From Muribaculaceae bacterium (lineage in GTDB: Bacteria; Bacteroidota; Bacteroidia; Bacteroidales; Muribaculaceae), in contig JAFZSO010000063.1 in the NCBI GenBank assembly GCA_017619355.1, positions 1-41,474 on the forward strand: 41,474 bases of DNA, written 5' to 3'. The position numbers were made by a program, and so were the translations under genes. Shown one piece after another: positions 9,786 to 37,978 of this stretch. Under the pieces are notes generated by a model. It was given only the letters and a program-made list of their open reading frames with translations, had not been told where the DNA came from and made no database searches. Each line of letters opens with the position of its first letter. Position 1 is the stretch's first letter.

Positions 9786-9796
9786 ATTCCGTCCTG

Positions 9797-9879
9797 TGGG
9801 TAGAGATGGATTCGAACCACCGAAGCGATGACGCAGCAGATTTACAGTCTGCCCCATTTGGCCACTCTGGAATCTACCC
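9797..9879 (-). tRNA. tRNA-Tyr (anticodon GTA)
   Basis: An 83-base class II tRNA with a long variable arm. Acceptor stem GGGTAGA/TCTACCC with discriminator A; anticodon stem GCAGA/TCTGC around CTGTAAA (anticodon GTA); T loop TTCGAAT. The extended variable arm (GCGTCATCGCTTC region) fits bacterial tRNA-Tyr. Confidence 0.95.
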
Positions 9880-9896
9880 AAGCCATAATTTTTTTG

Positions 9897-9970
9897 AGCC
9901 TCTTGTCGGATTCGAACCAACGACCCCGAGATTACAAATCACGTGCTCTGGCCAACTGAGCTAAAGAGGC
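9897..9970 (-). tRNA. tRNA-Thr (anticodon TGT)
   Basis: Acceptor stem GCCTCTT/AAGAGGC is perfect. The anticodon arm CGTGA/TCTCG encloses TTTGTAA (anticodon TGT) and contains one U-U apposition. The T loop is TTCGAAT. It is the promoter-proximal tRNA of the cluster, 44 bases downstream of the -7 box at 10014-10021. Confidence 0.93.
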
Positions 9971-18977: not shown

Positions 18978-19009
18978 CAAAATTAAGCATTTTTCATGAA
19001 ATACGCAAA
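18978..19009 (-). promoter_or_regulatory. Promoter of the lacI gene
   Basis: Minus-strand -33 TTTG (19006-19009), 20-base spacer, -7 TAATTTTG (18978-18985), a full consensus match. The -33 box is inside the operator-like palindrome at 19002-19017, which implies autorepression. Confidence 0.8.
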
Positions 19010-19017
19010 CGATTGCA
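19002..19017 (+). promoter_or_regulatory. LacI-type operator, susC/lacI intergenic
   Basis: TACGCAAACGATTGCA contains the imperfect palindrome GCAAA-CG-ATTGC, the general form bound by LacI/PurR-type regulators. The 12-base core CGCAAACGATTG recurs upstream of both amylases. Its centre is about 61 bases before the susC -7 box. A further inverted repeat, GCGAA-AA-TTCGC, lies at 19027-19038. Confidence 0.75.
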
Positions 19018-19070
19018 CAAAAATTAGCGAAAATTCGCAATAAAATAGGTGTTTACAAGTAAAAAAAAAC

Positions 19071-19078
19071 TAATTTTG
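19071..19078 (+). promoter_or_regulatory. -7 box of the susCDEF operon
   Basis: TAATTTTG followed by CAAAG, identical to the lacI -7 box. The -33 region 19-21 bases upstream (TAGGTG) is poor, which suits a promoter that needs an activator. The leader to the susC ATG would be about 86 bases. Confidence 0.65.
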
Positions 19079-19170
19079 CAAAGTTAAAGCACTCCAAAGT
19101 AGTGTATACGTTGAAAAGCATACTTACTAACTAATTAGTTAAATAATTTAATTTTTAAAACAAACAAAAG

Positions 19171-22100
19171 ATGAAACAGGTAAACTTCAGAATTCCCTCG
19201 CGGATTCTTGCTCTCCTGATGGGATTGTTTATCTCCATCGGAGCCTATGCACAGATTACTGTGAATGGTATTGTCAAGGATGCTACGGGCGAACCTGTTA
19301 TCGGCGCAACAGTGCAAGTTGTTGGAACACAAAACGGCACTGCGACCGACCTTGACGGTCTCTTCGTTTTGAGGAACGTCAAAGAAGGTTCCCAGATCCA
19401 AGTTACCTATGTGGGTGCAAAAGCACAGACACTGACTGTGGCCCCCAACATGGAAATCACCCTTGAAGACAACACCACCGTTCTCGACAACGTGGTGGTA
19501 ATCGGTTACGGTCGCGCCAAGAAGAGCGACTTGACCGGTTCTGTTACAGCCATCAACCCCGACTCCAAGAACAAGGGTGTCGTGGTGAGTGCACAAGACG
19601 CATTGGCAGGAAAGATAGCCGGTGTGAACGTTACCAACGGCGGTGGTACTCCTGGTGGAGGCGCTACCATCCGCATCCGTGGTGGCTCGTCATTGACCGA
19701 AAAGGGAAACGACCCTCTTATCGTGATTGACGGTGTGCCCATGGACAAAGAAGGTGTGAAAGGTCTTGCCAACGGCCTTTCGATGGTGAACCCTCAGGAT
19801 ATCGAGACCTTCACCGTGCTGAAGGATGCTTCGGCAACGGCAATCTACGGTTCTCGTGGTTCTAACGGTGTTATCATCATCACCACCAAGAAAGGTAAGA
19901 AAGGCCAGCCCATCCATGTATCTTACAATGGAAGCTTGACCATCAGCACCAAGAAGAAAACTATTGATGTGATGACTGGCGACGAGTATCGCGCCTACGT
20001 GGCCGACCTCTATAAGGACAACGACCGCTACGACGATGCCATTGCAGCTCTGGGCGACGCCAACACCGACTGGCAGAACGAAATCTACCGCACTGCCATC
20101 AGCCACGACCACAACGTGACCCTGTCGGGTTCGGTTGGCACCGTTCTGCCCTATCGCCTCTCTCTGGGCTACACCGACCAGCAAGGTATCCTCAAGACTT
20201 CAGACTTCAAGCGTTACACCGCTGCTCTGAACTTGAACCCCACATTCTTCCAAGAGCACCTGACCATGAACTTGAATGCCAAGTACATGTTTGCCAAGAG
20301 CCGCTACGCTGATGGTGGCGCCATTGGCAACTCGGTGCGCATGGATCCCACACAGCCTGTCCACAAAGATGGTGGCCTGTATGAGAACATGGGTGGCTAC
20401 TTCGCATGGTTTGCCAGTGCCGATGCACTGAAGGATCCTGCTTGGACCAGCAAGCAGAACACCAATGCCCCCTACAACCCCGTGGCAATTCTTGATCTCA
20501 AGAACGACCGCGCACGCAGCCACGCCTTCATTGGCAATGCCGACATCGACTACAAGATTCATGGCTTCGAAGACCTGCGACTCCACCTCACACTGGGTGG
20601 CGACTTCTCAGGCGGTAAGCAGCTCACCGACGTGGACAACACCAGCCCTCTCGCCAACTACTACGGCAGCTTCGGCTGGACCAAGGAAAGCAAGGAGAAC
20701 TTGACCCTGAGTGCCTATGCACAGTACTACAAGGACTTCACTACCAAGCACCACTTCGACATCATGTTCGGTTACGAGTGGCAGCACTTCTGGCGCAAGA
20801 ACAACAGCGAGTATCGCGACTACTATCCTCTGAATTCTGGTAAATACTTAGAAGATGATGATGGCAACTATATTGATTTAAATGGCAATATTGTTGATGA
20901 AGAACATAAAGTTTCGATGGCTGGAATGGTTCACAACACCACGCTGCAGAACAACGGTCTCGGTTATCGCACCGAGAGCTTCCTGGTATCGTTCTTCGGT
21001 CGTGCCAACTACATCTACGACGAGAAATACTTCCTCACCTTCACCATGCGTGACGACGGTTCATCGCGTTTCCGCAAGCACTGGGCTCTGTTCCCCTCAC
21101 TGGCATTTGCATGGCGCATCAAGAACGAAGACTTCCTGAAGGACAACAACACACTGAGCGACCTCAAGTTGCGTCTGGGTTGGGGTAAGACCGGTCAGCA
21201 GGAAGGCATCGGCGACTATTCCTATTTTGCCAACTACGTGATGAGCAATGGCGTTCAGGGTTCGTTCTACGACCTGCTCGGCGACGGTTCTATGGCTCGT
21301 CCTAACGCTTACAACATGGACCTCAAGTGGGAGACCACCACTACTACCAACGTGGGTATCGACTTTGGTTTCCTGAACCAGCGCCTGACCGGTAGCATCG
21401 ACTGGTACTACCGCAAGACCACCGACCTGCTCAACTATGCCAACGTGGCTGCTCTGAGCAACTTCCGCAACCAAGTGCAACAGAACATCGGTTCGTTGAA
21501 GAACACGGGTATTGAGCTATCTCTGAACTGGAAAGCCATTCAGACCAAGGACTGGTACTGGACCATCGACTACAACTTCACATACAACAAGAATGAAATC
21601 ACTGAGCTTCTCGACGATGACCCCGACTACAAGGTTCTCACCGGCGGTATCTCCAGTGGTACAGGTAACACCTGTCAAGTACACGCTGTGGGACATCCCG
21701 CAAGCTCTTACTATGTTTACCAGCAGGTTTATGACCAGAATGGCATGCCCATCGAAGACCAGGTGGTGGACCGCGATGGTGACGGTGTGATTTCTGAAAG
21801 CGACAAGTACTTCTACAAGTGCCCCATGGCTCCCATTACTATGGGTCTGGCATCTCGCCTGGAATACAAGAACTGGGACTTCGGCATGAGCTTCCGCGCA
21901 AGCATCGGCAACTATGTGTTCAACGATGTGATGAACAGCTACCACAACGTGGGTAAGGCCGCTATCTTCGAGTCGGTATCGGGTAACTACCTGAACAACC
22001 GCCCCGTTGAAGCTATCGCCTACGGTTGGCAGACCTACGACAACCCCGCTTGCTTGAGCGACCGCTGGGTACAGAACGGCTCGTTCCTCAAGTGCGACAA

Positions 22101-22302
22101 CATCACGCTGGGCTACAGCTTTGCCGGACTGTTCAAGAGCGGCAATTGGGACGGTATGGGCGGCCGCGTTTATGCAACTGCATCAAACGTGTTCACCATC
22201 ACCAAGTATAAAGGCATTGATCCTGAAGTTTACGGCGGCATCGACAACAACATCTATCCGCGTCCCTTCTCGTTCATCCTTGGTTTGACATTGAATTTCT
22301 AA
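19171..22302 (+). CDS. susC: SusC-like TonB-dependent starch-oligosaccharide transporter
   Basis: 1,043-residue outer-membrane receptor. Signal peptide 1-27 (ending GAYAQ), CarboxypepD_reg-like domain about 29-105 (VNGIVKDATGEPVIGATVQV), a TonB-box-like LDNVVVIGYGRAKKSDLTGSV, the plug (GKIAGVNVTNGGG, IRIRGGSSLTEKGNDPLIVIDGVP, DASATAIYGSRGSNGVIIITTKKG), then a 22-strand barrel ending in the aromatic FSFILGLTLNF. It imports oligosaccharides captured by SusD across the outer membrane using TonB energy. At about residues 554-588 there is an Asp/Asn-rich loop (LEDDDGNYIDLNGNIVDEE) written in AT-rich codons unlike the rest. It leads the susCDEF operon, 21 bases before susD. Confidence 0.96.
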   Translation: MKQVNFRIPSRILALLMGLFISIGAYAQITVNGIVKDATGEPVIGATVQVVGTQNGTATDLDGLFVLRNVKEGSQIQVTYVGAKAQTLTVAPNMEITLEDNTTVLDNVVVIGYGRAKKSDLTGSVTAINPDSKNKGVVVSAQDALAGKIAGVNVTNGGGTPGGGATIRIRGGSSLTEKGNDPLIVIDGVPMDKEGVKGLANGLSMVNPQDIETFTVLKDASATAIYGSRGSNGVIIITTKKGKKGQPIHVSYNGSLTISTKKKTIDVMTGDEYRAYVADLYKDNDRYDDAIAALGDANTDWQNEIYRTAISHDHNVTLSGSVGTVLPYRLSLGYTDQQGILKTSDFKRYTAALNLNPTFFQEHLTMNLNAKYMFAKSRYADGGAIGNSVRMDPTQPVHKDGGLYENMGGYFAWFASADALKDPAWTSKQNTNAPYNPVAILDLKNDRARSHAFIGNADIDYKIHGFEDLRLHLTLGGDFSGGKQLTDVDNTSPLANYYGSFGWTKESKENLTLSAYAQYYKDFTTKHHFDIMFGYEWQHFWRKNNSEYRDYYPLNSGKYLEDDDGNYIDLNGNIVDEEHKVSMAGMVHNTTLQNNGLGYRTESFLVSFFGRANYIYDEKYFLTFTMRDDGSSRFRKHWALFPSLAFAWRIKNEDFLKDNNTLSDLKLRLGWGKTGQQEGIGDYSYFANYVMSNGVQGSFYDLLGDGSMARPNAYNMDLKWETTTTTNVGIDFGFLNQRLTGSIDWYYRKTTDLLNYANVAALSNFRNQVQQNIGSLKNTGIELSLNWKAIQTKDWYWTIDYNFTYNKNEITELLDDDPDYKVLTGGISSGTGNTCQVHAVGHPASSYYVYQQVYDQNGMPIEDQVVDRDGDGVISESDKYFYKCPMAPITMGLASRLEYKNWDFGMSFRASIGNYVFNDVMNSYHNVGKAAIFESVSGNYLNNRPVEAIAYGWQTYDNPACLSDRWVQNGSFLKCDNITLGYSFAGLFKSGNWDGMGGRVYATASNVFTITKYKGIDPEVYGGIDNNIYPRPFSFILGLTLNF

Positions 22303-22323
22303 TTCTTAATATCGACTACAACA

Positions 22324-24126
22324 ATGAATAAGATTTTTAAATATTTCGTGCCTGCAGCAGCTCTGCTGCTCACAGCAGGATTCACATCATGCGTTGGTGA
22401 TCTTGACGTGGAGCCCATCGATCCCGGTCTGCAAAGCTCCATCGATGCTGAACAGCTCTTTAACAAGTGCTATGCCAACTTTGCCGTGGCCGGTAATGGC
22501 GGTGCCAACGGCGACAGTGACGTGGATGGTATCGACGGTGGTACGTCGGGTCTGTTCCGTCAAATGTGGAACTCGAATGAATTGACATCTGACGAGGCCA
22601 TCTGCGGTTGGGGCGACGAAGGTATCAACACCTTCTGCTACAACAGCTACGATGCTTCTCATCCTATGCTGCGCGGTTACTACTACCGCTTGTGCGCCGG
22701 TATTGCATTCTGCAATCACTACATTGATGAATTTGGCGAATATAACGCTACCATGACGGCTGAGGTTCGCTTCCTGCGTGCCTTCCAGTACTACCTGCTC
22801 ATGGATGCATTCGGAAATGTTCCTTTCGCAACCAGCGTGAGCACCGAGAAACCGGTTCAATATAGCCGTGCTGAAATGTACGAGTGGATTGAGAAAGAAC
22901 TTAAGGCCGTTGCTGGTGAAGATGGCGAAGACAACGCTACCGTTCTGAACGAGCCTCAAGCCAAGAAGAAAGGCGATGCTAACTGGGGCCGCGTGGACAA
23001 GGCTGCCGCCTGGATGCTGCTGAGCCGCCTGTACCTGAACGCTCAGGTTTATATTGGCACTGCTCACTGGCAGGAAGCCGCCGACTATGCCAAGAAGGTG
23101 ATTGACTCGCCTTATCAGCTGCTCACCGAAGGCTCTTCAAAGGAAGTGCACCGCAAAGAGGCTCTCGCCTACTGGGATGCCGACAAGAAGGAGAAAGTGC
23201 CCGCCGATCCCGCTATCTATGAAGAATGGGACGAAGTGTGGGATTTCACTCCCTATCAGATGCTGTTTATGGGCGACAACGCCAAGACCGACGCCGCCTA
23301 TGAGGCTATCTTCCCGCTCATTCAGGATGGTAAGCGCACCACCTCTTGGGGTGTATCGCTCTTCCTGATGGCTTCGACCCACGATGGCGACATGCACCCG
23401 CTCGTGTATCGCACTACCGACTACGCAATGTCTCCACAAGAAGTTGATGGCGTTCTCTATGACCGCTATGTGGCCGATCCCGCTGTGAATGGTGTGGCTG
23501 GTCAGGCTTGGGGTGGTAACCGTGCACGTCCCGACCTCATCCGTCTGTTCTTCCCCGCCGACGATGCTCCCGAAGTTCAGGCCTATGACATGTATCTGGC
23601 TGCTGGCGACGACCGCGCCCTGTTCTGTTCTGAAGGCCGCTCGTTCGACGTGACCGACGTGACCGTGTTCAAGAACGGTTACGGCGTGTCGAAGTTCAGC
23701 AACTTCACCACCGACAACAGTGCTACAAGCGATGCAACCTTCCCCGACACGCACACCTTCCTGTTGCGCAAGGCTGAGGCTTATCTGACCTATGCCGAGG
23801 CTCTCACTCGCATAGCTGGTGGTTCTGCACCCGCCGAAGCTCTGAATGCCCTGAATATCATTCGTGACCGCGCTCACGCTGCTCCGCTGTCGAACGCCAG
23901 CCTGCAGACCATTCTGGATGAGTGGGGACGTGAATTCTACTTTGAAGGCCGCCGTCGTGTCGACCTGATTCGCTTTGGCAAATTTGGTGGCAACACCGAC
24001 TATAAGTGGCAATGGAAGGGTGGCGTGTTTAGCGGCCGTGACTTCCAGGCTTACCGCAATGTGTTTGCCATCCCGACGACCGACATCATTGCCAATAAGA
24101 ATCTGGTACAAAACCCCGGTTATTAA
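22324..24126 (+). CDS. susD: SusD-like starch-binding lipoprotein
   Basis: 600-residue SusD/RagB-family surface lipoprotein. The signal peptide ends at lipobox cysteine C23 (LTAGFTSC), followed by acidic residues typical of surface-exported lipoproteins. The N-terminal SusD-like domain has tetratricopeptide-like helices (RFLRAFQYYLLMDAFGNVPFAT; KAAAWMLLSRLYLNAQVYIG). The C-terminal RagB/SusD signature is FLLRKAEAYLTYAEAL...NIIRDRAHA...WGREFYFEGRRRVDLIRFGKF. It forms the lid on SusC and binds starch at the cell surface. Confidence 0.96.
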   Translation: MNKIFKYFVPAAALLLTAGFTSCVGDLDVEPIDPGLQSSIDAEQLFNKCYANFAVAGNGGANGDSDVDGIDGGTSGLFRQMWNSNELTSDEAICGWGDEGINTFCYNSYDASHPMLRGYYYRLCAGIAFCNHYIDEFGEYNATMTAEVRFLRAFQYYLLMDAFGNVPFATSVSTEKPVQYSRAEMYEWIEKELKAVAGEDGEDNATVLNEPQAKKKGDANWGRVDKAAAWMLLSRLYLNAQVYIGTAHWQEAADYAKKVIDSPYQLLTEGSSKEVHRKEALAYWDADKKEKVPADPAIYEEWDEVWDFTPYQMLFMGDNAKTDAAYEAIFPLIQDGKRTTSWGVSLFLMASTHDGDMHPLVYRTTDYAMSPQEVDGVLYDRYVADPAVNGVAGQAWGGNRARPDLIRLFFPADDAPEVQAYDMYLAAGDDRALFCSEGRSFDVTDVTVFKNGYGVSKFSNFTTDNSATSDATFPDTHTFLLRKAEAYLTYAEALTRIAGGSAPAEALNALNIIRDRAHAAPLSNASLQTILDEWGREFYFEGRRRVDLIRFGKFGGNTDYKWQWKGGVFSGRDFQAYRNVFAIPTTDIIANKNLVQNPGY

Positions 24127-24168
24127 TGAATTGATTGGTTTCACATTATTATAATGACAACAACGATT

Positions 24169-25380
24169 ATGAAAAAGATAATGAAGTCAACATTGCTGCT
24201 GCTTGGCGCTCTCGTCATGTTCACAGCATGCTCCGACGACAGAGATTCGAACCCGACGCTCGTTCAGCCCGACTCGTTCGTGCTCAACGCTCCTGCTTTC
24301 GCAACCTCTGACATCGACCTGGCAAGTTCAACTGCCATTCCGTTCACATGGTCGCAGCCCGACTACGGCGGCTTCCCTGTGGCTGCTGAATATCAGTTCC
24401 AAATTTCGACTACCGGTAACTTCACCACCTCGGTGGAAGAAGCGATTGCCGACGAAACCGGCGAGACCGTGGCCGACTATGCCCTGCTTGAAGACGTGTT
24501 CACCGAGTGCAAGGGTGGCATACTTGCCGCTCACATTGCCAAGGCTCTGCAGCAACTCGAGAAATGGCCTGAGGGCGAAGTTCCTGCCTCTCAAGTAGTT
24601 TACCTACGTGCTGTTGCCAAGGCCATAGGTGCTCAGCCCGTCTATTCTAACGTGATTAAACTCGACAACGTGATTCCCTACTATGTGGAACTCAAGGATG
24701 CTCCTATCGTGCTGTGGTACCTCATTGGTAACTGCATTGGCGACGGTTCTTGGGGCAACTCTCCCGACAACGTGGGTACAGCTCTTATCCCACTGCTTCC
24801 CGACCCGAATGCCGAGTTCAACAAGGTGGATGGCACCGGCATCATCGTTTATGCCGGCTATTTCCCCGCAGGCGGTCAGTTCAAGCTGGTCAAGGTTCCT
24901 GGTTCTTGGGATGATGATAAACAAATGAACTTCACACACGTGAAGGGCAGCGACGGCATCGTGAGCGATGAAGAAAACCACAACATCGGCATCCTCAACG
25001 AGGGCTACTACAAGATCATCGTTAACACTGAGAAGAACGAGATTGAAGTAACTGCAATCGAATCGAGCGACGAGTATGGCACCATCAGCATGCCGGGTAC
25101 TTACCAGGGATGGAATCCTGCTGAAAACTACATGACTCCTATGGCTGGTGCACGCGTGAGCGAGTGGATGGCAACCATAACATTCGACGCAGACGCTAAT
25201 GTGGATGCAGACGAAGGTATGAAGTTTGCCGCCGACGGCGCTTGGGACACCAACTGGGGTGCTGAAGCCTTCCCGTTAGGCATTGGTACTCAGGGTGGCA
25301 AGAACATCCGCTACAAGAAGGGTACTTACACTGTGTTCTTCAACGACATTCTGGGTATCTACTACTTTATTGAGCAATAA
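24169..25380 (+). CDS. susE: SusE-like starch-binding lipoprotein
   Basis: About 403 residues from the ATG at 24169 (MKKIMKSTLLLLG); an upstream in-frame ATG at 24154 is the alternative. Lipoprotein signal with lipobox MFTAC. An N-terminal SusE domain (about 30-175, PDSFVLNAPAFATSDIDLASSTAIPFTWSQPDYGG) is followed by two starch-binding modules, one at VLWYLIGNCIGDGSWGNSPDN and one at TISMPGTYQGWNPAENYM, ending KGTYTVFFNDILGIYYFIEQ. Tryptophans in each module are probable sugar-stacking residues. It has two binding modules, like SusE of Bacteroides. Both are very close in protein and DNA to the last two modules of the next gene. Confidence 0.9.
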   Translation: MKKIMKSTLLLLGALVMFTACSDDRDSNPTLVQPDSFVLNAPAFATSDIDLASSTAIPFTWSQPDYGGFPVAAEYQFQISTTGNFTTSVEEAIADETGETVADYALLEDVFTECKGGILAAHIAKALQQLEKWPEGEVPASQVVYLRAVAKAIGAQPVYSNVIKLDNVIPYYVELKDAPIVLWYLIGNCIGDGSWGNSPDNVGTALIPLLPDPNAEFNKVDGTGIIVYAGYFPAGGQFKLVKVPGSWDDDKQMNFTHVKGSDGIVSDEENHNIGILNEGYYKIIVNTEKNEIEVTAIESSDEYGTISMPGTYQGWNPAENYMTPMAGARVSEWMATITFDADANVDADEGMKFAADGAWDTNWGAEAFPLGIGTQGGKNIRYKKGTYTVFFNDILGIYYFIEQ

Positions 25381-25450
25381 ACAATCATGATGGAGCGGGC
25401 TCCATCCCGTGGCAGTCCGCTCCTCATTAAAACGAAAAAATATTACAGAC

Positions 25451-26950
25451 ATGAAAAAGATATTTTCAATTTTCGCATTTGCATTGCTCTTGGCAAGCTG
25501 CACCGACGATTATAAAGACTGGGCCGACCCGCAGTCATATCTGCCCGACGACGCCATCTCGTTCGCCGGCTTCGCAGCAAGCGGAGTTGATGCCATCGAA
25601 CTGGGCAAAGTTGAAGAAGACTCTGTGAACATCTTCACGCTCAGCAATGCAACGATTCCCGAAGGATACGAGCTCACTAACGCTCGCGTCTATGTGTGTC
25701 CTACCGAGATGACTGGTGTCGTGCCTCAAATCATCTCGACCGACCTTACCGGTAAGGCAAGCGTGGCCGACGTGCAGGCCTACATCCAATCAGTGTTTGG
25801 CGCTCGTCCCGAATTGCGCTCCATGGTGGGTCACGTCTATTACAATGCTGTGAAAGACGGTCTCTCGGTGCTGCTCGACGCTGGCGAAATTCCCCTGAAC
25901 ATCGCACCTGCAGCTCCCATCATCGACGACTACTACTACCTGGTGGGCAGCATGAATGGCTGGAGCTCCGAAAACACCGACTATGAGATGGCCAATGGCG
26001 GCGGCGATGTGTATGACGATCCCGTCTTCAACATCATCATTCCCGCTACCAGCGAAGACATTTACTTCAAGGTGGCTCCGAAGAGCGCTATTGGCGATGC
26101 CAACTTCTGGGACCTCATCATCTGCGCTGTGACTGAAGAAGACGATGATGCAATGGCAGGCACCTTCGCTGTGGGCAACAACGGTAAGGCATTCAAGATT
26201 CCTTCCAACCCCGCCTACGTACAGTATAAGATTTCGTTCAACATGCTCGACCTCACCTACGAGATTGTTGGTCTTACCGGCGACGCAGATATGTGGTACA
26301 TGGTAGGTAATTGCATTGGTAACGGTTCTTGGGGAAACTCTCCCGACAATGTTGGTACAGCTCTTATCCCACTGTACCCCGATCCAGAAGATCCCACCAT
26401 GCTCCACTATATAGGCATGTTCCCTGCAGGCGGTCAGTTCAAGATGATCCACACTCCTGGCGAATGGGATCCACAGATGAACTACAACAACATCATTAGT
26501 CCTAACTCTGACATCGTGAGTGATGAAGACGGTGACAACCACAACATTGGTATCATCAATGAGGGTCTCTACTACATCACCGTGAACACTGCTAAGCAAT
26601 CTATCACCATTGAGGAGTACCCCGAAAGAGCATTGATCTACTCAACCATCACCATGCCTGGCACTTATCAGGGTTGGAACGTGAGTGGCAATGCTATGAC
26701 AGCCATGAGCACCATGGTTGCCGAAAACCACGACTGGGTAGCTAAGGTGACCTTCGACGCCGATGCTAACACTGCACTTGCCGATCCTGAAGGCTTCAAG
26801 TTTACCAACGGTACTTGGAGCGTCAACTGGGGCGGCAGCGGCTATCCCTATGGCATCGGCACGCAAGATGGTCCTAACATCCCCTACAAGAAGGGTACTT
26901 ACACCATCTGCTTCAACGACATTCTGGGCGCTTATGTCTTCATCAAATAA
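25451..26950 (+). CDS. susF: SusF-like starch-binding lipoprotein
   Basis: 499 residues from the ATG at 25451 (MKKIFSIFAFALLLASC, lipobox cysteine C17). A longer reading frame upstream lacks a signal and is rejected. An N-terminal SusE/F-type domain (about 30-155) is followed by three starch-binding modules: DDYYYLVGSMNGWSSENTDY, ADMWYMVGNCIGNGSWGNSPDN and STITMPGTYQGWNVSGNAM. Three modules is the SusF arrangement in Bacteroides. It is the last gene of the operon, 70 bases after susE and followed by a strong terminator. Confidence 0.9.
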   Translation: MKKIFSIFAFALLLASCTDDYKDWADPQSYLPDDAISFAGFAASGVDAIELGKVEEDSVNIFTLSNATIPEGYELTNARVYVCPTEMTGVVPQIISTDLTGKASVADVQAYIQSVFGARPELRSMVGHVYYNAVKDGLSVLLDAGEIPLNIAPAAPIIDDYYYLVGSMNGWSSENTDYEMANGGGDVYDDPVFNIIIPATSEDIYFKVAPKSAIGDANFWDLIICAVTEEDDDAMAGTFAVGNNGKAFKIPSNPAYVQYKISFNMLDLTYEIVGLTGDADMWYMVGNCIGNGSWGNSPDNVGTALIPLYPDPEDPTMLHYIGMFPAGGQFKMIHTPGEWDPQMNYNNIISPNSDIVSDEDGDNHNIGIINEGLYYITVNTAKQSITIEEYPERALIYSTITMPGTYQGWNVSGNAMTAMSTMVAENHDWVAKVTFDADANTALADPEGFKFTNGTWSVNWGGSGYPYGIGTQDGPNIPYKKGTYTICFNDILGAYVFIK

Positions 26951-26988
26951 ATGATGAAGGGATAAACCCATCCTTTTACAACATAGCG

Positions 26989-27026
26989 CGGGCTGCACTC
27001 CACACCGAGTGCAGCCCGCCTTGCTT
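26989..27026 (+). terminator. Terminator of susCDEF
   Basis: A perfect 12-bp stem, CGGGCTGCACTC (26989-27000) and GAGTGCAGCCCG (27007-27018), with a 6-base loop, followed by CCTTGCTTTT. It lies 38 bases after the susF stop and separates the operon from the amylase unit. Confidence 0.9.
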
Positions 27027-27103
27027 TTCCACCCCCAGAGGTCTCTAACGAGGAATCCGAGATCTCAGAGAACTCAGAGAACTCGGAGTGTGCGGCATTG
27101 TTT

Positions 27104-27117
27104 CGCAATCGTTTGCG
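27104..27117 (+). promoter_or_regulatory. LacI-type operator before the first amylase
   Basis: CGCAATCGTTTGCG, a 14-base palindrome with one mismatched pair; its reverse complement contains the same CGCAAACGATTG core as the susC site. Its centre is 62-63 bases before the -7 box at 27173. Confidence 0.75.
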
Positions 27118-27148
27118 TTTATTTTCCATTGAAAAACGTAGCACCAAT

Positions 27149-27180
27149 ATTGTTTATTATAAGAATTATTCATATATTTA
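27149..27180 (+). promoter_or_regulatory. Promoter of the first amylase
   Basis: -33 ATTG (27149-27152), 20-base spacer, -7 TATATTTA (27173-27180). The -7 departs from consensus in its last base. Position, spacing and much of the surrounding sequence (TAAGAATTATT) are conserved before the second amylase. Confidence 0.65.
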
Positions 27181-27232
27181 CCCGTTCTATAACCAAATGC
27201 TAATTAAATAATAAACTATAAACTTGAACAAC

Positions 27233-30200
27233 ATGAAAAAGAAACTACTTACTTTAGCAACTGCCTTGATATTGCCACTGTTGGCAATGGCTCAAGGCTG
27301 GCCCGCCAACTATGGCGGCGTGATGCTGCAGGGCTTCTTCTGGGACTCGTGGACCCCGAACCCCATCAACAGCCCGCGTGGCGGTGCATTAAACTTCCTT
27401 GACGCCAACACCTTCGGGCTTCAAGACGGTTATACATGGGCTACCATATATGGTGCCGGATGGTCAACAGGCGAAGAGTGGCAAGTTCCCTTGACCACAT
27501 GGAACAGCCTGATAGCTCACAAAGACGAGATTGCTCCCTACATCGACCTGCTATGGCTCCCGCAGAGCGGTTCTACCATCTGCCCGCCCACGACCAAGTT
27601 CAAAAAAGAACAGGATACCAGTGGACGAAATGCATGGCGTGCCTGGCGAAACGGTCAATACTATGAGTTTACCAACGACATGTACATCAACCAGCCCGAC
27701 TGTATGGGCTTTGTGCCTGTGTTCTACTTCCACCACGGTGAACCTGGTGATGGAACCACCTATGACTACACCTACTATTTCACCGATAATGAAGGTTCAC
27801 AGCAGAGAACCTTCGTACCCAAGAGCTACTTTGGCACTGAAGCCGAGTTGCGTCAGCTCATCAGCGAATACAAAGCTGCTGGCACAGGTGCTGTAGAAGA
27901 TGTGGTGGCTAACCACCGTGGATGCTTCGGCACTTGGGATTTCGAATACACCAACAGCAATGGTGGGAACACGAAAATCTATGAGGCTTTTAAAGGAAAC
28001 CTCGACTTCCCAACCGAGTATTACTTCGGACAATTCCGAGGCAAGAACTGGGAGCAGATTCGCAACGGCGAGACAGTTGCCGGGCAAGGTTTCTACCCAG
28101 GCGACTGCGAGGAAATTTCCTGGAACACCGCCGATGTGTGTAGCGATGACGAGAGCGCCTCTTACGGTGGCAACCCAACTGGCGGCCCCGACTGCGGCGG
28201 TCAAGGTGAATGGGCACGCGACATCCAGCACCATAACCCCGTAACCCGTGCCAAGGTGGTGAAATACCTCGACTTCCTGAGAAACGACTTGGGTTATCTT
28301 GGTTTCCGCTACGACTATGCTATGGGTTTCGAGGGCGTGCATTATGCCGAGTACAACACCACCCTGCGCCCTCCCTTCAGCGTGGGTGAATACTGGGGTG
28401 ATATCGCAAACATCACAAGCTGGATTGGCAGCACCTCGATGGAAGGCAACTACCAGAGTGCCGCCTTCGACTTCCCGCTGATGAGCAAAATCAACGAAGC
28501 ATTCAACGATGGACACTTCCGCTGGCTGAGAGACGCAGGACTTATTGGCGACCACGATATGCGCCGCTATGCCGTGACCTTCGTCGACAACCACGACACC
28601 TTCAAGGATCTGCCCACCGACGGTTCTAACTACAATTACCAGCACCGCACCAATCATAATATCGAAGAGGCCAATGCCTTTATCCTTGCTATGCCTGGCA
28701 CACCCTGCCTCTTCTATCCGCATTTCATGCACCCGCAGTGGCATGAGCATATCTGTAACATGGTGAAAGCCCGCCGCGCTGCTGGCGTTCACAACATGAG
28801 CGAAATCCTGTCGGTTACCGAGTCTGGAAACAACGGCATCACCTGGATTGTGGAAGGCACTCATGGCAATGTATGTCTGCAGTTAGGCGATGCAGCTGGT
28901 GGCGACACTCCCAAAGATTATCAAGAAGTGTTCCACTCCAGCATCTGCCGTTACAGTATCTCCACTGGACTTGACTGGCAGAACAACAGCAAGTCGCCAT
29001 TAATCACAGGTTATCCCATCATCAGCAGAGGAACCTGCGCCTTTAGCAACAATATCACCATTAATGTGAAGCCCTCGTTGAGCGATATCACCTTGGTTTA
29101 TACCACTGACGGCAGCAACCCGACCAGCGCAAGTGCAACAATTCCTGCTGGCGGCAAGGATTTCACCTTCACTGATAATACCCAACTCAAGGTAGGTGTG
29201 CTCACGAACAATGTAGTACAGAGCATCGTGTCGAACACCTATTCCAAGACCGATGATGCCAACCTGGCTACTATCTATGTGCAGGCCTCTGATGCTCCCA
29301 ACCTGTATCTGTGGAGCAACACCAAAGATTTCAAGCCTAACGGCGGTTGGGCTGGCAACAAGACCACCGAGATGAAGACCGTGAAGGGTATAAACTGGCA
29401 TTGTAAATCTTTCCCATTACCCGATTATTCCAATGGTGAATACTACAACCTGATTATTAACTGGGACGGCGGCTCGCAGTCGCACCCCATTACGGGCATT
29501 ACCAGCGACCGCTATTTCAAATATGTTAACGGTCAACCCGTCGATGTCACTGAAGAATACATAGGCACTGTGCTCAAACTCACTGCCGACAAAGAAGACG
29601 GCATGTACGACGGTCCCTTCGATGTGACACTCAAAGCCAATGACCCCAGTGTAACCATCGTCTACACCACCGATGGCAACGCACCCACTGCCAGCAGTGC
29701 AACACTCACTGGAGAAGGCAAGGTGACCATTAGCGGAGAAGGCAATCATGTGCTGCGTGCTGGACTTCTTGTTGATGGCCAGGTCATCAACGAGATTACA
29801 CGCACCTATGTCATCCAGAATGTCGCCCACACTGGCACACACATCTTTGTGCGCAGCCAGATTGGAGCACCCTGGCTCTTCATCTATAATGCTGTAACAA
29901 GTGACCAAAGCAGTCAGAACTGGCCAGGTATGCAACTCACTGAGACCGTTCAAGACGAAGATGGTTTCACATGGTACTACTATGAAAATGATAATCTCCA
30001 ATCTTGCGACATCGTGCTAAGTGACGGCACAACTGGACTCAGCAATGACCAGAAACCATATCACCAGACCGAGGACATTACCGGTGTAAGCGGCGACTGC
30101 TACCTCGTTTGGTACAATAATGAAGGTGCAGGAAACAAGAAAGGATACCTCAATGTCACCAATATGGTTGATAACTCTTACTTGTTATTCGAACCTGACA

Positions 30201-31486
30201 AAAACTCCTGGGACTCGGATGGTGCAATCCAAAAACTGTTTATATCAGGTGTAGGAAACTTTATGGACTTTACCCGCATTGGCGGCACCAATGGCGGTAA
30301 TAGTGTGTATCTGTGGAAAAACAGTGCAACTGTGAACAATGGTACCGAGATTTGCTTCAAGCGCATGAATCCAAATAATCCGTCAAGCGACGCAGGCCAG
30401 TGGAACTGGTCAAGTTCTGCCAATGGTCAACCAACCCAAGGCTATGTCAAGGGTGGCTATTACTACAATGACCTTAGTGTAAACAATGGTCAATGGGACA
30501 AGACTGTAGTGCTTGGCACTGTAAGCTATAACAACTTCAAGTATCCCAGTGTTACTCACAAGATTGGCAACATCACGAGAGCATTGCTCGCTGAGGTGGA
30601 GAAGAATGGTACAACGGAGACCAACTACACCATCGACGAAAACCTCACCGTGGGTTACATCGACAATAATGTCATCTATGCTTTCAACGCCCAGGTTGAT
30701 GCCAGTGAATGGCAGCAACCCAGCGATGGCAATGTCGACTATGTACAGCTCACTTGGGGTAATTCGGGTAAGACCACACAGCACAACTGGGTGAAGATTA
30801 CAGGTTCTAACAACATCAACAATTATCAACCAGGCTCCGTGCTGAGCAATGTTACCGGTGAACTCACTGATGACATCAACACCACAATCAACCTGATGCT
30901 TGAACCTATCAAGGAGAGAGATGGTAGCGCACCCAATCTGAACATTTACACGCCTTGTAACTTCGGAGCTGTAGGAGAAAGCCAGACTCAGACAAGCACT
31001 CAGAACGGCCAGACCTACTTCTTCTACCATCCGCAAATCAATGAGATAGCACATATCAAGGGGGCTGTCTACAAAGGCAATGGTGTGTTTGAAGTACCCG
31101 CAAGAGAATTTGTTCAGAATGATCAGTATCCTGATGGACACTGGGTTAATGGTGCCGCACTCACGGGAAGCATCACGGTAGACCTTAGCACAAATAACAT
31201 AGATCTTCCCAGTAGTGCCATTGGTATGGCTGTTGACTTCGATGTGCTCATCACCCACGAAACGAGCAAGGCAAGCGATAACTACGACATCACTGTCATC
31301 TCCGCTGGCACTCCTTACGGAGTCACTACAGCAGTGACTGATGTGAAGCAAGCTGCGAAAGTGACGAGTGTGCGCTTCTTCAACCTGCAGGGCATGTCGA
31401 GCGACAAGCCGTTCAGCGGTATCAACATCGTAGTAACCACTTACGACGATGGCAGCCGCACCAGCAGCAAGCAACTGTTCAAATAA
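27233..31486 (+). CDS. Secreted multidomain GH13 alpha-amylase with T9SS-like C-terminal tail
   Basis: 1,417 residues from the ATG at 27233, about twice the size of Bacteroides SusG. The signal peptide MKKKLLTLATALILPLLAMAQ has no lipobox, so it is not a lipoprotein. The GH13 barrel (about 22-560; GGVMLQGFFWDSW start) has all four motifs: DVVANH (D223, H228), GFRYD with nucleophile D361, VGEYW with acid/base E386, and VDNHD (H454, D455). Then come a chitobiase-type/Fn3-like module (about 610-672), a CBM26-like starch module (about 678-765, IYVQASDAPNLYLWSN), a second such pair (790-965) and two unassigned modules (about 980-1085 and 1100-1300). The tail (about 1377-1417, VRFFNLQGMSS...YDDGSRTSSKQLFK) resembles type IX secretion sorting domains. 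It probably degrades starch outside the cell. Confidence 0.93.
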   Translation: MKKKLLTLATALILPLLAMAQGWPANYGGVMLQGFFWDSWTPNPINSPRGGALNFLDANTFGLQDGYTWATIYGAGWSTGEEWQVPLTTWNSLIAHKDEIAPYIDLLWLPQSGSTICPPTTKFKKEQDTSGRNAWRAWRNGQYYEFTNDMYINQPDCMGFVPVFYFHHGEPGDGTTYDYTYYFTDNEGSQQRTFVPKSYFGTEAELRQLISEYKAAGTGAVEDVVANHRGCFGTWDFEYTNSNGGNTKIYEAFKGNLDFPTEYYFGQFRGKNWEQIRNGETVAGQGFYPGDCEEISWNTADVCSDDESASYGGNPTGGPDCGGQGEWARDIQHHNPVTRAKVVKYLDFLRNDLGYLGFRYDYAMGFEGVHYAEYNTTLRPPFSVGEYWGDIANITSWIGSTSMEGNYQSAAFDFPLMSKINEAFNDGHFRWLRDAGLIGDHDMRRYAVTFVDNHDTFKDLPTDGSNYNYQHRTNHNIEEANAFILAMPGTPCLFYPHFMHPQWHEHICNMVKARRAAGVHNMSEILSVTESGNNGITWIVEGTHGNVCLQLGDAAGGDTPKDYQEVFHSSICRYSISTGLDWQNNSKSPLITGYPIISRGTCAFSNNITINVKPSLSDITLVYTTDGSNPTSASATIPAGGKDFTFTDNTQLKVGVLTNNVVQSIVSNTYSKTDDANLATIYVQASDAPNLYLWSNTKDFKPNGGWAGNKTTEMKTVKGINWHCKSFPLPDYSNGEYYNLIINWDGGSQSHPITGITSDRYFKYVNGQPVDVTEEYIGTVLKLTADKEDGMYDGPFDVTLKANDPSVTIVYTTDGNAPTASSATLTGEGKVTISGEGNHVLRAGLLVDGQVINEITRTYVIQNVAHTGTHIFVRSQIGAPWLFIYNAVTSDQSSQNWPGMQLTETVQDEDGFTWYYYENDNLQSCDIVLSDGTTGLSNDQKPYHQTEDITGVSGDCYLVWYNNEGAGNKKGYLNVTNMVDNSYLLFEPDKNSWDSDGAIQKLFISGVGNFMDFTRIGGTNGGNSVYLWKNSATVNNGTEICFKRMNPNNPSSDAGQWNWSSSANGQPTQGYVKGGYYYNDLSVNNGQWDKTVVLGTVSYNNFKYPSVTHKIGNITRALLAEVEKNGTTETNYTIDENLTVGYIDNNVIYAFNAQVDASEWQQPSDGNVDYVQLTWGNSGKTTQHNWVKITGSNNINNYQPGSVLSNVTGELTDDINTTINLMLEPIKERDGSAPNLNIYTPCNFGAVGESQTQTSTQNGQTYFFYHPQINEIAHIKGAVYKGNGVFEVPAREFVQNDQYPDGHWVNGAALTGSITVDLSTNNIDLPSSAIGMAVDFDVLITHETSKASDNYDITVISAGTPYGVTTAVTDVKQAAKVTSVRFFNLQGMSSDKPFSGINIVVTTYDDGSRTSSKQLFK

Positions 31487-31509
31487 AAAATTGTTGAACC
31501 CATAAAAAC

Positions 31510-31547
31510 AGAGGGTGGAGGCTTCACAGTCCCCGCCCTCTTCTTCT
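31510..31547 (+). terminator. Terminator of the first amylase
   Basis: GAGGGTGG (31511-31518) pairs with CCGCCCTC (31533-31540; one G-U pair), followed by TTCTTCT. It is near-identical to the terminator of the second amylase. Confidence 0.8.
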
Positions 31548-31610
31548 ATGACCCTGCAGCACCTCTCGACCCAATTTCCAGCCAGAAAGACGACTCGTTT
31601 GCGGGATTGT

Positions 31611-31626
31611 CACGCAAACGATTGTG
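31611..31626 (+). promoter_or_regulatory. LacI-type operator before the second amylase
   Basis: CACGCAAACGATTGTG carries the CGCAAACGATTG core; its centre is 62-63 bases before the -7 box at 31682. A partial inverted copy, TCGTTTGCG, lies just upstream at 31595-31603, so two regulator dimers could bind here. Confidence 0.75.
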
Positions 31627-31657: not shown

Positions 31658-31689
31658 ATTGTTAATTCTAAGAATTATTTATATTTTTA
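31658..31689 (+). promoter_or_regulatory. Promoter of the second amylase
   Basis: -33 ATTG (31658-31661), 20-base spacer, -7 TATTTTTA (31682-31689). It is homologous to the first amylase promoter, including TAAGAATTATT in the spacer and CGTTCTAT after the -7 box. Confidence 0.65.
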
Positions 31690-31752: not shown

Positions 31753-34700
31753 ATGAAAAAGAAATTACTTACTTTAGCAAGTGCCTTGCTGTTGCCCGTG
31801 CTGGCAATGGCGCAAGGCTGGCCCGCCAACTATGGCGGTGTGATGCTGCAGGGTTTCTTCTGGGATTCATGGACTCAGACGCCCATTAATGGTCCTCAAG
31901 GAGGTGCTCTCAATTACTTGATTAATCCCGAAATGGCTCCTGCTGAAGGCTATACCTGGGCAACTATGTACGGTGCCGGATGGCCCACAGGCGAAGAGTG
32001 GCAAGTGCCCTTGACGACATGGAACAGCCTGCTGGCACACATCAACGACATCGCTCCCTACATCGACCTGCTGTGGCTGCCACAGAGCGGTTCAACCATT
32101 TGTCCACCGACATCCCTATTTAACAAGAGTCAGGACACCAGTGGGCGTAACGCTATTCGTGCTTGGCGAAACGGCACCACATTCGAGTTCCAGAACGACA
32201 ACATCATCAACCAACCCGACTGTATGGGTTTTGTGCCGGTATTCTATTTCCACCACGGCGTAGACGATGTGGACAATCCCTGGACCTATACTTACCACTG
32301 GGGAAGTTATACCGACGAGAACCCGACAAATGAGATTCGCACATTCACGCCCAAGTCTTACTTTGGCACTGAATCGGAATTGCGTGCCCTCATCAGCGCC
32401 TACCGTGTCGCTGGCACAGGTGCAGTTGAAGATGTGGTGGCAAATCACCGCGGATGTTTCGGAACCTGGACCTTTACCAGCGACGACGGCCAAATCACCT
32501 ATGTTTCCACCAAGGCTAATCTGGATTTCCCCACCGAGCTGTATACTGGACAGTTTGCCGGATTGGATTGGGAGCAGATTCGTTCAGGACAAACCGTTGA
32601 TCCCAACTCCAACGAGTACATCTCTTGGAATACCGACGACGTTTGTAGCGATGACGAGAGCGCTTATTTCGGTGGAAACCCGACTGGTGGCCCCGACTGC
32701 GGCGGTAAGGGCGAGTGGGCACGCGACATCCAGCACCACAACCCCGTGACACGCGCCAAGGTTGTGAAATACCTTGACTTCTTGAGGAACAACCTGGGCT
32801 ATCTGGGCTTCCGCTACGACTATGCCATGGGCTTTGAAGGCGTGCATTATGGCGAGTACAATACCACCCTGCGCCCCCCCTTCAGCGTGGGTGAATACTG
32901 GGGTGACATCGCAAACATCACAAGCTGGATTGGCAGCACCTCGATGGAAGGCAACTACCAGAGCGCGGCCTTCGACTTCCCGCTGATGAACGCCATCAAC
33001 CAGGCATTTAACTACGGCAATTACCGCTGTCTGGAAGATGCTGGCATGATTGGCGATAAAGACATGCGCCGCTATGCCGTGACCTTCGTAGATAACCACG
33101 ACACCTTCAAGGATCTGCCCACCGACGGTTCTAACTACAATTACCAGCACCGCACCAACAGCAACATTGAAGAAGCAAACGCCTTCATCCTTGCCATGCC
33201 TGGTACGCCCTGCTTGTTCTATCCACACTTCATGCACGGTATCATTGATGGTGACAACGGCTGGCACCACAACATCTGCAACATGATCAAAGCTCGCCGC
33301 GCTGCCGGTGTGCACAACATGAGCGAGATTGTTGAGGTACGCAAACCGGGTAACAATGGCATCGCTTGGGTTGTACAGGGCACTAACGGACAAGTTTGCT
33401 TCCAGCTTGGCGATGCTGTGAGCATGGAGGGTGTTCCTGAGGGATTCCAAGAGATTTTCTGCACTAATGTAGGCCGCTATAGCATCACCAGTGGAATTGA
33501 CTGGCAGAACAACACCAAGTTGCCATTGATTACAGGTTATCCCATCATCAGCAGAAGTACCTGTGGATTTAGTGGAGATATTACCGTGAATGTGAGACCC
33601 TCGATGAACGACATCACTCTGGTTTACACGACCGATGGTACCGAACCTGATGTCAATAGTGCTCAAATCACTGGTATCAATGGCCAAGATTTCAACTTTA
33701 CCGAAACCACACAACTTAAAGTAGGTGTGCTCACAGGCAATGTGGTGCAGAGCGTGGTATCGAACACCTATGCCAAAACCGGCGATGCCAATTCGGTGAC
33801 CATTTATGTACAGGCCGACGATGCTCCCAACCTGTACCTGTGGAGCAACAACAAAGACTACAAGCCTAATGGCGACTGGGCAGGTAACAAGACCACACAG
33901 ATGAAAACTGTGGGCGGCATCCGGTGGCACTGCAAGACTTTCCCACTGCCTGATTATTCCAATGGCGAATACTACAACCTGATCATCAACTGGGACGGCA
34001 ACTCGCAGTCGCACCCCATCACCGGCATTACTGGCGACCGTTACTTCAAATATGTTAACCACCAACCCATTGATGTGACCGAAGAGTTCATAGGCACAGT
34101 GCTCACTCTTACCGCTGACAAGGAAGATGGCATGTACGACGGTCCCATCGATGTGACACTCACAGCAAACGACCCCACCGTGGCCATCGTTTACACGATT
34201 GACGGGGCAGAACTCACTCCTGAAAGCCCGCAAGCGACCACAAACGACGGTAAGGCCACAGTCAGGATCACTGGCGATGGCGAGCATGTGCTGCGTGCGG
34301 GAATTCTCGTCGACGGACAGGTCATCAATCCCATCACATGCAACTATCTCATTCACCAAAGTGCATATCCGGGCACTCGCATCTTTGTGCGCAGCGCACG
34401 CAATGGCGCACCTGCTCCACACCTGTTCATCTGTGATGTGGTGGGCACTGCTCCCGACAGCACCTATACCACATGGAGCGGCAGAGTGATGGATCAGGCT
34501 GTGCAAGACGACGATAATTACACCTGGTACTATGTCGAATTCCCTGGTCTGGATTCCTGCACGGTTATTTTGAACAACGGCAACAGCGGCGATGCCAACC
34601 AGACCGAAGACATTACCGGACTGAGCGGTGATGTGTATCTCTCATGGGATAGCGACAACCGCTATATGAATGTCACGGGGCTCAAGAACCACAAGGCGTT

Positions 34701-37527: not shown

Positions 37528-37579
37528 GGGAATAGTATAATAGTAAACGAGTAAACAAGGAAACAAGCTAACGAGGGAA

Positions 37580-37978
37580 CTATCGCAAGGCCAGGTAGTG
37601 GCGGCGGTGGCGCGGGCCGTGCGAAAGGTGAATCCAGGCAAAGTCGTGTTCGTTGATAGCCTGGTCAACTGGCAACTGTAATTGCATGAGCAAGTGATAA
37701 AGGCGGGCATTGTCGAGGCGGCTGCCTACCGTGATGTCGGCGGCCTCGCCACGCATGTGCTGGCTGTGAGGTGCTCCACCCACGGCACGGTTCAACGCCG
37801 GACTGCGATATCCGCTGTTCACATGAATGGGACCGCCCCATGCCTCGCGCAGGGGGTCAAGCACCTGCTCCACAAGGCGGTGCAGATTGGCAACTGCATC
37901 GGCTGGCGGGGTGTTGTCGATGCCCAGCCGGTGGGCAGTGGCCGAGCGAGTGAGTTCTTCAAGGGTAAAATGTTTCAT
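37580..37978 (-). CDS. M15-family peptidoglycan peptidase, phage endolysin type
   Basis: 132-residue D-Ala-D-Ala/L-Ala-D-Glu-type peptidase. A short N-terminal segment (MKHFTLEELTRSATAHRLGI) is usual for phage-derived M15 proteins. The zinc site is complete: H74 and D81 in SQHMRGEAADI and H117 in WIHLSH, with R58 in GYRSPALN. There is no signal peptide, as expected for an endolysin that needs a holin or lysis to reach peptidoglycan. It precedes the portal-like gene by 52 bases on the same strand and probably shares its transcript. The active site is intact, unlike a decayed remnant. Confidence 0.88.
   Translation of the reverse strand: MKHFTLEELTRSATAHRLGIDNTPPADAVANLHRLVEQVLDPLREAWGGPIHVNSGYRSPALNRAVGGAPHSQHMRGEAADITVGSRLDNARLYHLLMQLQLPVDQAINEHDFAWIHLSHGPRHRRHYLALR

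What the first reader, a model, noticed from the sequence alone, without database searches (positions are those of the whole stretch)
19002..31626. One LacI-type operator core placed at the same distance from three starch promoters
The 12 bases CGCAAACGATTG occur upstream of susC (19004-19015), the first amylase (27106-27117, opposite strand) and the second amylase (31613-31624). Each palindrome centre lies 61-63 bp before the -7 box, about six helical turns. Such constant spacing at about -75 is more typical of an activator or upstream co-regulator than of a simple blocking repressor. The adjacent LacI-family gene is the natural candidate. This would be a LacI-run starch regulon replacing SusR.
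Basis: partly seen in the sequence, partly recalled or inferred. Interest (0 to 1): 0.75.

Follow-up and report, generated by a model that had tools for sequence, protein, structure and literature searches.

The report
LacI-type activator of starch genes
Rumen and gut bacteria of the Bacteroidales type appear to switch on starch-eating genes with a relative of the classic lac repressor that binds one DNA palindrome a fixed number of helical turns before the promoter, which suggests that it works as an activator; no bench test has been done.

Summary
CGCAAACGATTG occurs three times in the window and nowhere else in the 2.63 Mb genome. It is the core of a 14-bp palindrome found at eight promoters of this genome, all before starch-type genes or their neighbours in the pathway. 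In 14 genomes of the genus, 60 of 62 full-consensus sites (56 with a perfect match) have the -7 box TAnnTTTG 60.5-63.5 bp from the palindrome centre. These promoters lack the -33 element: TTG at -23 in 2/131 against 21/95 controls. No second operator is near.

New: homologs of this lacI across the order (39-63% identity) have the same palindrome upstream in 54 of 73 loci. There the box distance is quantised: 16 at 60.5-63.5, none at 64-72, 10 at 72.5-74.5, none at 75-84, 4 at 84.5-85.5, 4 at 91.5-96.5. This is what face-of-helix contact predicts.

Best reading: a LacI-family, class-I-like activator of a maltodextrin regulon. Binding, ligand and sign of regulation are inferred. Replacement of SusR holds for this genome (89% complete); 41 of 61 relatives keep a SusR-family protein.

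The parts
17777..18829 (-). lacI: LacI-family regulator, 350 aa
   Evidence: Pfam LacI HTH 1.3e-14 and Peripla_BP_3 3.9e-29; ortholog in 59 of 61 genus genomes, own included
18978..18985 (-). -7 box TAATTTTG of the divergent lacI promoter, 25.5 bp from the operator centre
   Evidence: sequence; a box with <=1 mismatch at 24.5-25.5 in 12 of 13 lacI sides
19006..19009 (-). TTTG inside the operator, 24 bp before the lacI -7 box, i.e. at the -33 position of lacI's own promoter
   Evidence: sequence; in control promoters TTTG is commonest at the same -24 (10 of 95)
19004..19017 (+). operator CGCAAACGATTGCA between lacI and susC, centre 19010.5
   Evidence: conserved in relatives
19071..19078 (+). 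-7 box TAATTTTG of susC, 60.5 bp from the operator centre
19171..22302 (+). susC-type TonB-dependent transporter, 1043 aa
   Evidence: Pfam
22324..24126 (+). susD
   Evidence: Pfam SusD_RagB
24154..25380 (+). susE
   Evidence: Pfam SusE, SusF_SusE
25409..26950 (+). susF
   Evidence: Pfam SusF_N
27104..27117 (-). operator CGCAAACGATTGCG before amylase 1, centre 27110.5
27173..27180 (+). -7 box TATATTTA of amylase 1 (one mismatch), 62.5 bp from the operator centre
27233..31486 (+). amylase 1 (GH13-type amylase with CHB_HEX_C repeats)
   Evidence: residues 1-600 match barley alpha-amylase in the PDB, 8.2e-24; Pfam's own alpha-amylase model did not reach 1e-3
31613..31626 (+). operator CGCAAACGATTGTG before amylase 2, centre 31619.5
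31682..31689 (+). -7 box TATTTTTA of amylase 2 (one mismatch), 62.5 bp from the operator centre
31753..36030 (+). amylase 2 by likeness to amylase 1; has a weak CBM26 match and a dockerin type I domain
   Evidence: Pfam Dockerin_1 3.1e-13, CBM26 1.2e-4 below its cut-off; promoter spacer 79% identical to amylase 1

Best explanation
The palindrome YGCAAWCGWTTGCR is the operator of the adjacent LacI-family protein, which runs a starch/maltodextrin regulon as an activator, in this genus and, with the same operator, in many families of the order. A dimer bound with its centre about 62 bp before the first T of TAnnTTTG (about -73 from the start of transcription, if that T is at about -10.5) stands on a constant face of the DNA and recruits or stabilises RNA polymerase, most likely through the alpha-subunit C-terminal domain, at promoters that lack the -33 element. 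In other families the same contact is kept one or two turns further out (about 74 and 85 bp). In many relatives, among them named Prevotella, Hallella and Segatella, one operator sits midway between divergent lacI and susC promoters, about 62 bp from each, and would activate both. In the window's genus the operator's TTTG is the -33 box of lacI, so the bound protein should activate susC and repress its own gene. Shown by sequence: sites, spacing, whole-turn steps, missing -33, single operator, the two layouts. Inferred: that this LacI binds, the sign of regulation, the polymerase contact, the ligand (probably a maltodextrin or a sugar made from it).
For: Genus: 3-8 core sites in each of 25 of 25 genomes, reversed pattern 0-2. 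Of 76 sites fetched from 14 of those 25 genomes (74 exact core hits plus two one-mismatch sites of the own genome), 62 have the full consensus and 60 of these have a box with <=1 mismatch at 60.5-63.5 bp, 56 perfect; of the 14 others 5 do. By gene side: 58 of 81 non-lacI gene sides, unrelated divergent neighbours included, have a perfect box there (0.6% expected from the background rate); sides without a gene 2 of 58; lacI sides 0 of 13. Spacers of different genes in the own genome are mostly no more alike than shuffles except amylase 1/2. Missing -33: TTG at -23 in 2/131 vs 21/95 controls, p=3.2e-7; TTTG at -24 in 1/131 vs 10/95, p=9e-4. One operator only: second-best scores like shuffles, 1 of 58 >=8. 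Named records: operator within 1 mismatch in 56 of 59 loci, perfect far-side box at 61.5-63.5 in 49. Order: 54 of 73 lacI homologs have the operator within 1 mismatch in 700 bp (chance about 0.005 per locus), in 29 families; 34 perfect boxes at 50-100 bp fall at 60.5-63.5 (16), 72.5-74.5 (10), 84.5-85.5 (4), 91.5-96.5 (4), with 0 at 64-72 and 75-84; periodicity p below 1/2000 against uniform positions, also with the 62-bp group held fixed and with one entry per family and spacing; TTG at -23 in 1 of 34. Of 10 next genes tested there, 7 are SusC-type, 1 a cyclomaltodextrinase-type GH13, 1 SusE/F-like, 1 without match. Within the family: 63 sites in 11 genus genomes, 67 in 106 genomes of 25 other genera (reversed pattern 2 and 25).
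Against: No binding, expression or ligand data. Most characterised LacI proteins repress, and sugar normally releases them; an inducible activator needs another allosteric logic. Upstream contact can also repress (GalR at OE; PMC4693257). Boxes are predictions without mapped starts. The steps (group means 61.7, 73.8, 84.75) are nearer 11.5 than 10.5 bp, so the two-turn group is about 2 bp out of ideal phase, and the 91.5-96.5 group is loose. In the order set 19 of 73 loci have no operator within 1 mismatch, and 20 of the 54 with one have no perfect box at 50-100. Exceptions nearer home: L100 (G042) has the full consensus but no box, L108 has it at 64.5; L175, L211 (Xylanibacter ruminicola) and L219 lack the operator within 600 bp of lacI; three lacI-side boxes lie at 55.5. 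The lacI box of the window's genus is often TAnnTTCG. The listing was cut, so 11 of 25 genomes were counted but their sites not examined. Core columns of the motif were fixed by the search pattern.
Confidence: 0.77

Rival explanations
1. Contact repression: LacI bound upstream touches RNA polymerase and holds it inactive, as GalR at OE (-60.5) does at gal P1; sugar releases it. Fixed spacing and whole-turn steps then reflect a repressing contact.
For: GalR represses P1 and activates P2 from one upstream operator (PMC4693257, passages). S. pneumoniae MalR, a repressor, binds nearly the same sequence (PMC4451989, passages). Whole-turn spacing fits any face-dependent contact.
Against: A promoter that only needs release from repression should have an intact core; these lack -33 (2/131 vs 21/95; 1 of 34).
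Confidence: 0.12
2. Ordinary repression by blocking, or by a DNA loop between two operators.
For: Commonest mode in the family (general knowledge); in the window's genus the operator does overlap the -33 position of lacI itself.
Against: At target genes the operator centre is about 38 bp upstream of the -33 position, and no second operator is present within -300..+200.
Confidence: 0.03
3. Another protein, not this LacI, binds the palindrome.
For: No binding data; genomes of other genera hold occasional sites (67 in 106, reversed pattern 25).
Against: The palindrome lies beside this lacI in 56 of 59 named and 54 of 73 order-wide loci, and MalR, a LacI-family protein, binds nearly the same sequence.
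Confidence: 0.03
4. LacI is a helper that works only with another activator bound nearer the promoter.
For: A T-rich stretch lies at -50 to -47 from the box in 58 aligned promoters.
Against: No other clear conserved motif besides A-rich positions near the box in that alignment.
Confidence: 0.05

Closest known systems
MalR of Streptococcus pneumoniae and other Firmicutes (LacI family)
   Same: Near-identical operator (CGCAAACGTTTGCG at amyA2, CGCAAACGTTTGCGT at malM) and matching target functions (PMC4451989, passages)
   Different: MalR is a proven repressor there; LacI proteins of other phyla in the capped list are only 28-34% identical; here the site is at fixed whole-turn distances before promoters without -33
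SusR of Bacteroides thetaiotaomicron
   Same: Activator of susC-type starch operons (PMC3878776, passages)
   Different: [quoted passage not shown] here a LacI-family protein and a single palindrome
GalR at OE of the E. coli gal operon
   Same: LacI-family protein acting on RNA polymerase from one upstream operator, on a given DNA face (PMC4693257, passages)
   Different: One operon with a second operator and a loop; here a whole regulon shares one geometry
CcpA and Cra (FruR)
   Same: LacI-family proteins that also activate (Cra: PMC4052901 passage; CcpA: recalled). CcpA chains are among the best PDB matches of the alignment, top E 2.9e-50
   Different: Global and dual regulators; no NCBIfam equivalog cut-off is reached (ccpA 163 of 442 bits, CytR 204 of 436)
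Bacteroides LacI regulators UxuR, UxaR, UxmR, KdgR
   Same: LacI family in the same phylum (PMC3878776, passages)
   Different: They control uronate pathways; the passages seen name no starch regulon under LacI control

Membership tests
LacI/GalR family of transcription factors | LacI HTH domain plus periplasmic-binding-type ligand domain | tested here: met
   PF00356 1.3e-14, PF13377 3.9e-29
LacI/GalR family of transcription factors | Palindromic operator with central CG near its own gene | tested here: met
   found upstream of lacI in loci fetched by protein, not by motif: 56 of 59 and 54 of 73 within 1 mismatch
MalR (Firmicutes maltose repressor) | Operator CGCAAACGTTTGCG-type | tested here: met
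   this very 14-mer stands beside lacI in e.g. L181, L202, L228, L289; MalR site from PMC4451989
MalR (Firmicutes maltose repressor) | Orthology to MalR | tested here: inconclusive
   non-Bacteroidota hits 28-34% in a pattern-limited, capped list; no named MalR sequence was compared
MalR (Firmicutes maltose repressor) | Represses targets | not testable with these tools
   site position and missing -33 argue otherwise
Class I transcription activator | Single site upstream of the core promoter, distance fixed or changed by whole turns | tested here: met
   60 of 62 at 60.5-63.5; groups at 62, 74 and 85 bp with empty gaps; no second site
Class I transcription activator | Weak core promoter that needs help | tested here: met
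   TTG at -23: 2/131 vs 21/95
Class I transcription activator | Contact with RNA polymerase alpha-CTD and stimulation of transcription | not testable with these tools
   needs in vitro transcription or genetics
SusR family | Match to NF058541 / DUF6377 | tested here: not met
   the window protein is LacI; own genome has no SusR match better than 8e-4

The most novel reading that the evidence does not exclude
A LacI-family protein is a dedicated class-I activator of a polysaccharide regulon throughout an order of Bacteroidota: its target promoters have lost the -33 element and depend on one operator held at 62, 74 or 85 bp, whole helical turns apart, before the -7 box. One palindrome can drive two divergent promoters symmetrically, and autoregulation has opposite signs in two lineages because the lacI promoter lies 62 or 25 bp from it. 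Nature has thus run the spacing experiment that defines a class I activator, for a family known mainly for repressors.
Probability: 0.62. Interest if true: 0.7.

Novelty: new variant of a known kind. Interest (0 to 1): 0.64.

Why it matters
Starch use in Bacteroidota is the textbook model of glycan capture, with SusR as its regulator. Here a LacI-family protein appears to run it, instead of or beside SusR, in many families, and in a mode (activation from a fixed DNA face) that is unusual for its family. The finding gives direct predictions (sign of a knockout, spacing changes, ligand), a regulon for naming many surface starch proteins, and natural lineages in which the spacing jumps by a turn or autoregulation changes sign.

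Tried and rejected
Chance: rejected. Blocking or looping repression: disfavoured by position and by the absence of a second operator. Descent of one promoter as the cause of equal spacing: clear only for amylases 1 and 2.

Led nowhere: operators at 25-35% LacI paralogs of other genera of the family (my HTH pattern failed, the proteins have another HTH region, not pursued). AlphaFold model of the LacI (mean pLDDT 64, pTM 0.52) too weak, no fold search run. SusD similarity led to a SusR beside a susC in a sister genus (L268) but not to a sure starch locus.

Mistakes of mine, mended: lacI strand of L018 and L021 guessed wrongly. One search looked only 60 bp into the lacI side and missed boxes found. 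The Prevotella claim came from one search, which is pattern-limited and keeps the best 80; one search shows homologs across the order, and followed. Because of the whole-turn spacing found then, I raised the confidence from 0.72 to 0.77, the novel case from 0.60 to 0.62 (its interest from 0.66 to 0.70) and the interest from 0.58 to 0.64; the first-reader verdict went down.

Literature: searches that could have shown a prior report were (listings only; none shown by title or abstract start). Passages were read in PMC4052901, PMC3878776, PMC4451989, PMC11784079, PMC10766802, PMC4693257 and PMC7366714; no whole text. Subscription papers and preprints are not covered. Recalled only: CRP class I positions other than -61.5, CcpA as activator and its co-effector logic, MalR as activator in Lactococcus or Enterococcus (looked; its listing did not show it), LacI regulators at alpha-glucan loci of Flavobacteriia.
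Full report
What is there. The window holds lacI(-), then susCDEF(+) and two large amylases(+). The 12-mer is at the stated places and nowhere else in the 2.63 Mb assembly. It is the core of a 14-bp palindrome, generalised as YGCAAWCGWTTGCR. From the palindrome centre the -7 boxes of susC, amylase 1 and amylase 2 start at 60.5, 62.5 and 62.5 bp. The two amylase promoters are duplicates (spacer 79% identical, shuffles 32%).

Organism. The genome is an unnamed assembly, 89% complete. Named Prevotella, Hallella, Segatella and Xylanibacter records carry 59-65% orthologs, and the order scan places a 63% ortholog in another family. I leave the genus open.

Own genome. Two mismatches allowed give 11 places. 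Eight are promoter sites with boxes at 60.5-62.5 bp, five perfect and three with one mismatch: susC, amylases 1 and 2, an amylase-like gene (C58), malQ (C58; GH77 with CBM20), an aldose 1-epimerase (C19), and two CBM-type proteins (C58, C49; named by eye, not by Pfam). C48 lies in an ORF; C27 and C41 were left out.

Genus. The LacI ortholog is in 59 of 61 genomes, 61-86% outside the own. The core GCAAWCGWTTGC occurs 3-8 times in each of 25 genomes, reversed pattern 0-2. The listing was cut, so I fetched sites of 14 genomes: 76, of which 74 exact and two one-mismatch sites of the own genome. Sixty-two have the full consensus; 60 have TAnnTTTG with at most one mismatch at 60.5-63.5 bp on one side, 56 perfect. 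Of the 14 others 5 do; of the 9 that do not, 6 lie in called ORFs. Of 92 perfect boxes within about 140 bp on either side, 60 lie at 60.5-63.5 (6, 10, 31, 13) and 9 at 23.5-26.5. By gene side 58 of 81 have the perfect box there, against 0.6% expected; sides without a gene 2 of 58; lacI sides 0 of 13, of which 12 have a box (<=1 mismatch) at 24.5-25.5. The downstream genes include amylase/CBM proteins, susC, an MFS transporter, aldose epimerase and malQ.

Named records. Of 59 loci (L175-L233; one, L232, is a 36% paralog), 56 hold the operator within one mismatch and 49 have a perfect far-side box at 61.5-63.5 bp. At least five are the same contigs as genus genomes.

Two layouts. In the 54 loci of L175-L231 with the operator, 38 have a perfect lacI-side box at 60.5-63.5 bp, 32 of them with the susC-side box as well: the operator is midway between divergent promoters. 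Twelve others have the lacI box at 24.5-25.5 bp (<=1 mismatch), four neither; three boxes lie at 55.5. At 25.5 bp the operator's TTTG or ATTG falls on the -33 position of lacI. In a tree of 69 LacI proteins the layouts need 4 changes, against a mean of 27 for shuffled labels (12 of the genus loci were used, L225 was dropped as a broken frame). The direction of change is not settled.

The order. At E<=1e-80, 74 of 295 genomes in 51 of 178 genera have a homolog. I fetched the upstream stretch of 73 of the 76 listed places, leaving out the own genome and second copies in G339 and G251. In 54 of 73 the operator is present within one mismatch in 700 bp, in 29 families; chance would give about 0.005 per locus. 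In the other 19 it is not. On the side away from lacI, 34 perfect boxes lie at 50-100 bp: 16 at 60.5-63.5, none at 64-72, 10 at 72.5-74.5, none at 75-84, 4 at 84.5-85.5, 4 at 91.5-96.5. With one entry per family and spacing: 10, 6, 4 and 4. The best period is 11.3-11.6 bp; none of 2000 uniform draws, and none of 2000 draws with the 62-bp group kept, was as regular. Families f50, f57 and f25 hold members that differ by one or two turns. The steps are somewhat longer than 10.5 bp. Of ten next genes tested, seven are SusC-type, one a cyclomaltodextrinase-type GH13, one SusE/F-like, one without match.

Why activation. Control promoters in the same loci show -33 at its usual place (TTG at -23: 21 of 95; TTTG at -24: 10 of 95). 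Promoters with the operator at 62 bp lack it (2 and 1 of 131; p=3.2e-7 and 9e-4; searches agreed on a smaller set); in the order set TTG stands at -23 in 1 of 34. No second operator lies within -300 to +200. The TAnnTTTG and TTTG elements of the primary sigma factor are described in PMC7366714 (passages), which also says the -33 motif was not found in Flavobacterium johnsoniae. A site at whole-turn distances before a core without -33 is what a class I activator needs. GalR shows that a LacI-family protein can act on RNA polymerase from upstream with either sign (PMC4693257, passages), so contact repression is the main rival.

Who binds. The site lies beside lacI in loci fetched by protein alone. 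Within the family, 63 sites lie in 11 genus genomes and 67 in 106 genomes of 25 other genera (reversed pattern 2 and 25), where the LacI matches found are 35% or less or absent. MalR of S. pneumoniae binds CGCAAACGTTTGCG-type sites at maltose genes, as a repressor (PMC4451989, passages). CcpA chains head the PDB matches; CcpA binds DNA with a co-effector (recalled), and an inducible activator would need such logic.

SusR. The SusR model finds nothing better than 8e-4 in the own genome, none in G005 and G050 and 4.8e-4 in single-contig G060; 41 of 61 genus genomes have a match below 1e-100, 25 over the cut-off; 33 of 117 family genomes are over the cut-off. So the LacI system stands in some genomes without SusR and in most beside a SusR-family protein. 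Segatella copri DSM18205 is reported to have an incomplete Sus and not to grow on starch (PMC11784079, passages), so it is no test.

Limits. All is sequence evidence from mostly incomplete assemblies; relatives are not independent. Binding, ligand, sign and promoter starts are untested.

Noticed in passing
window 36121-37710 (-): A phage portal-like protein (P22_portal 4.7e-16; phrog_156 7.2e-38) lies directly after amylase 2; its neighbours were not examined for other phage genes beyond.
   Followed up: partly
window 31753-36030; L145, L094, L092, L122: Amylase 2 has a dockerin type I domain, and several regulon proteins end in similar-looking repeats (by eye).
   Followed up: no
L269 (G060) 3929-5023: A transposase-like gene (HTH and integrase-core domains) sits between lacI and susC; two operators 68 bp apart lie before susC and only the inner one is 62.5 bp from the box.
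   Followed up: partly
L091 (G046:C72): An operator-like site without full consensus lies 23.5 bp before TAACTTTG of an OmpA-like gene (named by eye), the layout expected for repression.
   Followed up: no
L211, L219: Xylanibacter ruminicola isolate SIG140 and a close relative keep the lacI ortholog but have no operator within 600 bp upstream.
   Followed up: no
L289, L290, L296, L303 (f55); L337, L343, L344, L348: In these families the operator stands about 74 or 85 bp from the box; whether all promoters of one genome keep the same turn class was not examined.
   Followed up: partly
window 8193-9970 and 10439-11335 (-): Five tRNA genes around an EF-Tu gene, followed by an integrase-type gene.
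   Followed up: no
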